This document shows, in pieces, positions 34,202-35,452 of a stretch of 64,000 bases of DNA. Origin of the DNA: Verrucomicrobiia bacterium (GTDB lineage: Bacteria; Verrucomicrobiota; Verrucomicrobiia; Verrucomicrobiales; Akkermansiaceae); assembly GCA_030432565.1 (NCBI GenBank), contig JAUIGV010000001.1, positions 248,001-312,000 of the forward strand, in the 5' to 3' direction. Below the pieces are notes generated by a model, which was not told where the DNA came from, made no database searches, and saw only the letters and a program-made list of their open reading frames with translations. A program made the position numbers and the translations under genes. Each line of letters starts with the position of its first letter. Positions within the stretch are counted from its first letter, which is position 1.

Positions 34202-35452
34202 CTACCACGGTTTTGCCTTGAGCGTATACTTTGCTTCCCGGGTCTTTCCCTCCCGGAGGTATTTGACGGTGATCTCGTCTCCTGCCTCGTAGTTGAGGCG
34301 AATATAGACCTGGGCGTTTACGGCAAGGGGGCTGGAGCTGGCTCCATCGACAGCGATGACGATGTCGCCCTCTCTCATGCCGGCTTGCTTGCCCGGGGTG
34401 CTGACCCAGAATTTGGTTGCGCGGGTGGCAAAGCTTTCGGTAGGAAGACCCAATTTTTTCTTCTCACCGATCGTGAGTGGCTTTCCCCAGAAGCCGGGGA
34501 ATGGTTCCATTTTGTGGCCAATGGAGCGCCGATTGAGGTCGGTGACGCGCCAGTGGGAGGGGAGAGCGATTTTTCGCGGGCCTTGATTGGTGGTCAGGGT
34601 CAGTTCCTTGCGATCACGGGGAAGGTGGTGGAGGACGTATTGAATGTCGGCGAAGGTGCTGACGGTCTTGCCATCGACTTTTAAGATTTCCTCTCCGTTT
34701 TTGATTCCGGACTTGGCGGCGGCACCGGTCGAGTGCTCTACGACGATGGGATCGTCCACTTTCAGTTTTAGGCCGAGTTTCGCCGGGTCTGGAAAGATCC
34801 AGGGGGAGGTTTTCTTGTCAAAATCAGCGAGGGCAAAGATTTCCACGGCTTGTCCCTCGGCCACCTGATGGCAGTGCACGCACTTGTTTTCCCGCACGGT
34901 CTTCAGGACGTTCGGAAAGGTTTGAGACATCTTGGATTTGCCGGCCGGTGGCGGGGTGAAGCTTCCGGCCTTCCATCGCTCATGAAGAATGAGCCCCCGC
35001 TGCAAGGCGATGGCGACACTGGGGATGGACAGGAAGGTTTCGGCCCCGGCGTCATTGCGGGCTCCATAGCGGAGGTAGACTTGCTTGCGGTGGTTGAGGA
35101 CAAAGAGTCCGAAAGTGGTATTGAAATCCATTTCGAAGACTCCGATATCAACTTCCGCCATGTTGGTGATGCGGAGGCGGATATACTTCTCCTGTAGTTT
35201 CCCGAGTGGACCGTCTTTTGGGGTGGACACGAACCGTGCCTCAAATTCGCGGCAATCCGCTCAGGTCTCTCACCGGAATTCCGCGAGGATGGGCTTGCCG
35301 GTTTTGCGGGATTGCTCAAGGGCCAGGTCGAGATCGGTGATCCAGGGATGGGAAGGTTCAAATGCCGGAGCCGGGGTGTGCGTGTTGTCGGCGGAAAGAG
35401 GGGCCGAAAGCAAAGCCAGCAAGGCCGTGGCGGCAAGGATTGGTAGATTCAC
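34202..35452 (-). CDS. Trx7/PDZ-type candidate selenoprotein with two in-frame TGA codons (UxxU)
   Basis: Same reading frame from 35452 (signal peptide MNLPILAATALLALLSAPLSA) through TGA 35272-35270 and TGA 35263-35261 into 'ADCREFEARFVSTPKDGPLGKLQEKYIRL...' with PDZ repeats; the ORF track splits it into 60 + 342 aa. Confidence 0.85.
35226..35240 (-). promoter_or_regulatory. candidate bacterial SECIS hairpin
   Basis: GGCACG-GTT-CGTGTC (6 bp, one G-U), loop starts with G, 26 nt after second TGA. Confidence 0.45.

What the first reader, a model, noticed from the sequence alone, without database searches (positions are those of the whole stretch)
34202..35452. Candidate double-selenocysteine Trx7/PDZ protein: CxxC position encoded as TGA-GAG-ACC-TGA
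Seen: ORFs 35270-35452 (signal peptide plus start of a Trx-like fold, 'WITDLDLALEQSRKTGKPILAEFR') and 34202-35230 (rest of the fold, a CVHCH motif and PDZ-like segments) share one frame. They are separated only by TGA (35272-35270), E, T, TGA (35263-35261), then ADCREFEARFV. The joined reading is KPILAEFR-U-ET-U-ADCREF, a thioredoxin active-site position as UxxU with a nearby third Cys. A hairpin GGCACG-GTT-CGTGTC (35226-35240) has a loop starting with G, 26 nt after the second TGA and 35 nt after the first, inside the spacing known for bacterial SECIS elements. Established: Trx7/PDZ proteins annotated as '(seleno)protein' exist in related bacteria. Inference: this one is translated by Sec insertion at two adjacent sites.
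Basis: partly seen in the sequence, partly recalled or inferred. Interest (0 to 1): 0.85.

Follow-up and report, generated by a model that had tools for sequence, protein, structure and literature searches.

The report
Double-selenocysteine thioredoxin/PDZ protein, shared SECIS
A marine Verrucomicrobium gene that looks broken by two stop codons in fact almost certainly encodes an exported thioredoxin-like protein whose two active-site cysteines are both replaced by selenocysteine, apparently read with the help of one small RNA hairpin; the protein family was known, but with a single selenocysteine.

Summary
Confirmed. One minus-strand frame, 35452-34202 (416 aa), contains TGA at 35272-35270 and 35263-35261. 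It is a Trx7/PDZ (seleno)protein (NCBIfam NF041199, 361.6 bits, cut-off 300). Both TGA codons align with the two active-site Cys of CxxC homologues. Fifteen distinct homologues in three separate clades keep both TGA codons (UxxU) down to about 25-31% identity, 18 have CxxU, 26 have CxxC and none has UxxC. A hairpin with a G-containing loop follows at the same offset in UGA-bearing members (two bases later in one clade). It shows compensatory changes in CxxU (99% paired, 0/1000 shuffles) and UxxU genes and is lost in CxxC genes. The genome has selA, selB, tRNA-Sec(UCA) and a selD that is itself a selenoprotein gene. All 17 UGA-bearing genomes tested have selA; most CxxC-only ones do not. The published catalogue lists this family as CxxU with one Sec, so UxxU is a new variant of a known selenoprotein. 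Still unproven: that both sites are decoded in vivo, that one SECIS serves both UGAs (25 and 34 nt from its loop), and the function. Best guess for function: an exported diselenol/diselenide oxidoreductase with a CxxCH (haem c-type) motif and two PDZ domains.

The parts
34202..35452 (-). Complete double-Sec Trx7/PDZ gene, 416 aa, GTG start (uncertain), TAG stop, two in-frame TGA
   Evidence: NF041199 361.6 bits, cut-off 300
35393..35452 (-). N-terminal signal-peptide-like segment (MNLPILAATALLALLSAPLS...)
   Evidence: sequence reading; disordered in the model, pLDDT < 50 for residues 1-26; no signal-peptide program was run
35162..35344 (-). Thioredoxin_7 domain (residues 37-97)
   Evidence: PF13899, E 2e-8; confident AlphaFold2 model
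35270..35272 (-). UGA codon 1 (Sec61), first position of the CxxC motif
   Evidence: aligned with Cys in CxxU and CxxC homologues
35261..35263 (-). UGA codon 2 (Sec64), second position of the CxxC motif
   Evidence: aligned with Cys in CxxC homologues, Sec in CxxU homologues
35225..35241 (-). SECIS hairpin core, apical loop 35235-35231 (GGTTC); outermost A-C pair not formed in the window copy
   Evidence: covariation; absent in CxxC homologues
35249..35260 (-). Small 4-bp hairpin GCGG-ATTG-CCGC directly after UGA 2 (possible spacer-compacting element; speculative)
   Evidence: 10/15 UxxU against 3.6 expected; 2/18 CxxU against 3.0 expected
34868..34882 (-). CVHCH, CxxCH (haem c-type) motif, residues 191-195
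   Evidence: C191, C194 and H195 invariant in alignment A5 of 34 rows; haem binding inferred
34571..34780 (-). PDZ domain 1 (residues about 225-294)
   Evidence: PF00595, PF14685 and PF17820
34229..34402 (-). PDZ domain 2 (residues 351-408)
   Evidence: PF13180
33700..34176 (-). TspO/MBR gene starting 25 nt downstream, possibly co-transcribed
   Evidence: PF03073, 161 bits; same order in relative L044

Best explanation
The gene encodes an exported selenoprotein in which both active-site Cys of a thioredoxin-like domain are Sec (U61-E-T-U64). Both UGAs are decoded by SelB and Sec-tRNA-Sec, using the hairpin 25 nt (UGA 2) and 34 nt (UGA 1) downstream. The UxxU pair probably cycles between diselenol and diselenide as a strongly reducing, oxidation-resistant centre. 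The CxxCH motif (probable c-type haem) could pass electrons to or from it, and the two PDZ domains would dock envelope client proteins. Shown by sequence and comparison: frame, Sec/Cys exchange, SECIS conservation, Sec machinery. Inferred: translation, one SECIS for both codons, haem, redox role, clients.
For: NF041199 above cut-off. Both TGA codons at Cys positions of homologues. Fifteen distinct UxxU, 18 CxxU, 26 CxxC, no UxxC. Three separate UxxU groups on the tree, with well-supported branches forcing at least 3 label changes. Covarying hairpin within the published bacterial SECIS limits. selA, selB, selD (with its own TGA), tRNA-Sec UCA. selA in 17/17 UGA-form genomes against 3/11 CxxC-only. 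Purifying selection upstream of the TGAs. Of 65 database relatives, 58 are truncated to begin downstream of these codons. Confident model, mean pLDDT 88.9.
Against: No expression, proteomic or selenium-labelling data. The window's own hairpin is short (5-6 bp, -6.3 kcal/mol alone) and its minimum-energy fold over 63 nt differs from the local hairpin. Homologues are mostly from metagenome-assembled genomes. Haem binding, export and redox role rest on motifs only.
Confidence: 0.9

Rival explanations
1. Only UGA 2 is read as Sec, as in CxxU homologues. UGA 1 acts as a selenium-sensitive stop or is read by near-cognate suppression, so full-length double-Sec protein is minor.
For: CxxU is the listed form of the family. 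UGA 2 has the spacing used in CxxU members (25 nt), whereas UGA 1 is at 34 nt, near the upper end of the published 16-37 nt range.
Against: UGA 1 is invariant in 15 distinct UxxU genes in three clades, although TGC or TGT at that codon is one change away and is what CxxU relatives use.
Confidence: 0.07
2. Each UGA has its own RNA signal: two alternative or overlapping hairpins, or a compacting hairpin after UGA 2 that brings the SECIS closer to UGA 1. (A refinement of the best explanation: both codons are still Sec.)
For: Extra 4-6 bp hairpin after UGA 2 in 10/15 UxxU against 3.6 expected; 2/18 CxxU. In L001, L006, L007 and L008 an alternative 8-bp stem puts a loop 26 nt after UGA 1.
Against: The extra hairpin is missing in the UAPU clade. 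The alternative stem is missing in the L009/L047-L049 and L102 groups, and shorter versions occur in CxxC genes. Rows are not independent.
Confidence: 0.2
3. Pseudogene, assembly error, or two separate genes with a downstream start at 35230.
For: Gene callers produce exactly this 342-aa product.
Against: Same two codons in many independently assembled genomes. Purifying selection on both sides. The short product would lack the active site and the first half of the thioredoxin fold.
Confidence: 0.02
4. UGA is a sense codon throughout this genome (reassigned code).
For: Two in-frame TGAs.
Against: A neighbouring gene (36431-37171) ends in TGA. Dedicated tRNA-Sec, SelA, SelB and SelD are present, and selD itself carries a TGA at its motif CGGU.
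Confidence: 0.01

Closest known systems
Trx7/PDZ domain-containing (seleno)protein, NCBIfam NF041199 (from its CxxU entry, probably the 2008 GOS 'putative secreted serine protease MucD' selenoprotein)
   Same: Same domains, length and Sec/Cys-exchangeable active site; window protein scores 361.6 bits against a cut-off of 300.
   Different: Catalogue lists motif CxxU with 1 Sec (PMC13188914; PMC9312934; GOS text CxxU). Here both positions are Sec.
UxxU selenoproteins: Prx-like thiol:disulfide oxidoreductase, FmdB family, metal-binding/mercuric-reductase-like NF041115 (bacteria); SelL (eukaryotes)
   Same: Two Sec separated by two residues. [quoted passage not shown]
   Different: Different protein families. 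SelL has two Sec and one SECIS; eukaryotic SECIS lie in the 3' UTR (PMC3541580).
DegP/DegQ/RseP PDZ domains; magnetosome MamE/MamP (PDZ plus CxxCH magnetochrome; that architecture from own knowledge)
   Same: PDZ domains match by sequence and fold; PDZ plus CxxCH combination.
   Different: No protease domain. Only the PDZ parts match; the thioredoxin domain is unrelated.
Bacterial SECIS, consensus model as given in PMC13188914 Fig. 2

Membership tests
NF041199 Trx7/PDZ (seleno)protein | Score above the curated cut-off (300 bits) over nearly the whole model | tested here: met
   361.6 bits, model 2-389 of 390; 14/14 members of A2 match
NF041199 Trx7/PDZ (seleno)protein | Thioredoxin_7 domain followed by PDZ domains | tested here: met
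   PF13899, PF00595, PF13180
NF041199 Trx7/PDZ (seleno)protein | Catalogued Sec motif CxxU, one Sec (a typical, not a defining, feature; CxxC members also belong) | tested here: not met
   Window has UxxU, two UGA; hence a variant within the family
Selenoprotein gene | UGA aligned with Cys or Sec of homologues | tested here: met
Selenoprotein gene | Sec machinery in the genome (selA, selB, selD, tRNA-Sec UCA) | tested here: met
Selenoprotein gene | Sec present in the protein | not testable with these tools
   needs MS or 75Se
Bacterial SECIS (bSECIS model) | Loop 3-9 nt with G in first two positions; stem 4-16 bp | tested here: met
   Loop GGTTC or GTT, stem 5-6 bp in window; 6-9 bp in most homologues
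Bacterial SECIS (bSECIS model) | 16-37 nt from UGA to the apical loop | tested here: met
   25 nt from UGA 2, 34 nt from UGA 1 (26/35 with the 3-nt loop)
Bacterial SECIS (bSECIS model) | MFE <= -7.5 kcal/mol | tested here: inconclusive
   -6.3 for the 19-nt core alone, -19.5 for 63 nt with a different fold
c-type cytochrome (CxxCH) | CxxCH motif in an exported protein | tested here: met
   C191, C194, H195 invariant; export only from a signal-peptide-like N-terminus
c-type cytochrome (CxxCH) | Covalent haem | not testable with these tools
   needs haem stain or spectroscopy

The most novel reading that the evidence does not exclude
A single in-frame bacterial SECIS hairpin directs Sec insertion at two UGA codons 9 nt apart. 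A second small hairpin after UGA 2, in some lineages, compacts the spacer while UGA 1 is in the A site and is melted by the ribosome before UGA 2 is read. This arrangement would have arisen repeatedly from single-Sec (CxxU) ancestors.
Probability: 0.3. Interest if true: 0.7.

Novelty: new variant of a known kind. Interest (0 to 1): 0.55.

Why it matters
It adds a double-Sec (UxxU) form to a family catalogued with one Sec and shows UxxU, CxxU and CxxC forms changing into one another, together with gain or loss of one covarying SECIS. That gives a natural experiment on how far from the UGA a bacterial SECIS can act, and whether one can serve two UGAs. It also exposes systematic mis-annotation: nearly all close database relatives begin after the UGAs and so lack the active site. 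The protein is a candidate exported diselenide redox centre linked to a CxxCH motif and PDZ domains.

Tried and rejected
Rfam at the site: only chance matches. Single-sequence folding of the window hairpin is not decisive. A per-sequence synonymous-recoding test is weak for the window (0.26), because the conserved residues already favour part of the stem, so I relied on covariation and the CxxC control. Plasmids: no match. Gene neighbourhood: TspO adjacency holds only in the nearest relatives and no partner is conserved across the UxxU genes, so it gave no function. Fold search matched only PDZ proteins among the best hits. Promoter and terminator scan uninformative. Alternative 8-bp stem (cols 22-29/38-45) considered as a second SECIS; not conserved. 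Two selenoprotein papers were not held, so a published UxxU form of this family cannot be wholly excluded.

Full report
WHAT WAS CHECKED. The minus-strand frame 35452-34202 is continuous except for TGA at 35272-35270 and 35263-35261 and ends in TAG. Read with TGA as Sec it gives 416 aa: a signal-peptide-like start, a Thioredoxin_7 domain with U61-E-T-U64 followed by a third Cys (C67), a conserved CVHCH and two PDZ domains. It passes the cut-off of NCBIfam NF041199, Trx7/PDZ (seleno)protein: 361.6 against 300 bits. AlphaFold2 on 34 homologues gives mean pLDDT 88.9, with the thioredoxin fold continuing across the two codons.

GENOME. The window lies in a 5.9-Mb, 82-contig genome. Orthologues that carry names come from uncultured Verrucomicrobiales/Akkermansiaceae and Roseibacillus metagenome assemblies. 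The genome holds selA (489 bits), selB (316 bits), a tRNA-Sec with anticodon UCA (Rfam RF01852, 54.4 bits) and a selD whose own frame has a TGA at ASCGGUASK. TGA also works as a stop: the gene at 36431-37171 ends in it. So UGA is read as Sec at selected sites, not throughout.

THE TWO CODONS. I collected 59 distinct homologous active sites: 15 UxxU, 18 CxxU, 26 CxxC, no UxxC. Every TGA falls on one of the two CxxC cysteines. UxxU members differ from the window by up to about 70-75% of residues. On a tree built without the motif, UxxU forms three groups (UETU-like, UAPU, UIPU), the last two beside CxxU members; well-supported branches force at least three changes of the UxxU label. These may be gains from CxxU or partly losses; direction was not tested. 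All 17 tested genomes with a UGA form have selA, against 3 of 11 with CxxC only (nominal P 5e-5, relatedness not corrected). The coding segment before the TGAs has dN/dS of about 0.05-0.19 where it could be estimated. Of 65 database relatives, 58 are truncated to begin downstream of these codons, as gene callers would produce.

THE SECIS. Counting columns from the first base of codon 61, a stem at 32-37/43-48 with loop 38-42 (mostly AGGTT or AGTTG) is present in UGA-bearing genes. In 19 of them the covariation score is 0.481 against 0.217 shuffled (0/500), and sliding the partner by one base drops pairing from 89.5% to 11-15%. With the enlarged set, CxxU genes are 99.1% paired with 19 double changes against 4.5 expected (0/1000). 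UxxU genes are 86.7% paired with 6 against 1.6 (2/1000); the four UAPU genes pair in a register two bases later. CxxC genes are 36.5% paired, no better than shuffled. The loop starts 25 nt after UGA 2 and 34 nt after UGA 1, both inside the published 16-37 nt range (PMC13188914). The window's own copy is modest (5-6 bp, -6.3 kcal/mol) and would not stand alone.

HOW IT MAY WORK. SelB bound to the hairpin delivers Sec-tRNA-Sec at UGA 1 and again at UGA 2. Since CxxU genes use the same hairpin at 25 nt, a first-codon change to TGA may have sufficed to extend one SECIS to a second codon. In two of the three UxxU groups a further 4-6 bp hairpin follows UGA 2 (10/15 UxxU against 3.6 expected from synonymous recoding; 2/18 CxxU against 3.0). 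If folded while UGA 1 is being read it would shorten the spacer to near 25 nt. The UAPU group lacks it and the rows are related, so this is a hypothesis. Chemically, a UxxU pair would form a diselenide, more reducing and harder to overoxidise than a disulfide (own knowledge of selenium chemistry). The CxxCH motif suggests covalent haem as electron partner and the PDZ domains suggest docking to envelope proteins. None of this is shown.

WHAT IS KNOWN. From its CxxU entry, the family was probably first reported as a CxxU selenoprotein named putative secreted serine protease MucD in ocean metagenomes (PMC2398784; cited as the source in the 2026 review); it is listed in 2022 and 2026 reviews as CxxU, the latter with one Sec (PMC9312934; PMC13188914). 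UxxU exists in other families and in eukaryotic SelL, which has one SECIS (PMC3541580). I found no report of UxxU in this family; two relevant papers were not available.

VERDICT. Both TGAs almost certainly encode Sec (about 0.9). The finding is a new double-Sec variant of a known selenoprotein family; the open and interesting part is how one short hairpin serves two codons.

Noticed in passing
window 35260-35249 and homologues (columns 13-27 of the 60-nt alignment): Extra 4-6 bp hairpin directly after UGA 2 in the UETU-like and two UIPU genes, enriched over synonymous recoding in UxxU but not CxxU genes.
   Followed up: partly
L010, L052, L053, L054: In the UAPU clade the SECIS stem pairs in a register two bases later (loop AGGTCTT or AGGTCCT) than in all other UGA-bearing members.
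   Followed up: partly
L046:4032-5060 (+): A DUF3179 gene, itself with an in-frame TGA (ATWUHLC), lies directly upstream of the UxxU gene: two likely selenoprotein genes side by side.
   Followed up: partly
window 33700-34176 (-): TspO/MBR gene starts 25 nt downstream of the selenoprotein gene; also adjacent in L044 and nearby in L045, not seen in the more distant UxxU loci.
   Followed up: partly
L002 (G000:C64:101281-102465): The same genome carries a second, all-cysteine paralogue (CVPC) about 26% identical, so both forms coexist.
   Followed up: no
protein ids P0001-P0058: Database relatives begin downstream of the UGAs (e.g. VSTPQNG, MECKSFD, MPCREF) and lack the active site; some are labelled 'serine protease Do'.
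   Followed up: yes
L100, L101: CEPU members have a much longer C-terminus (about 600 aa after the motif) with an extra Cys/His-rich stretch (CDEQHCHEF or CDEQGCHEF); the architecture differs from the 416-aa form.
   Followed up: no
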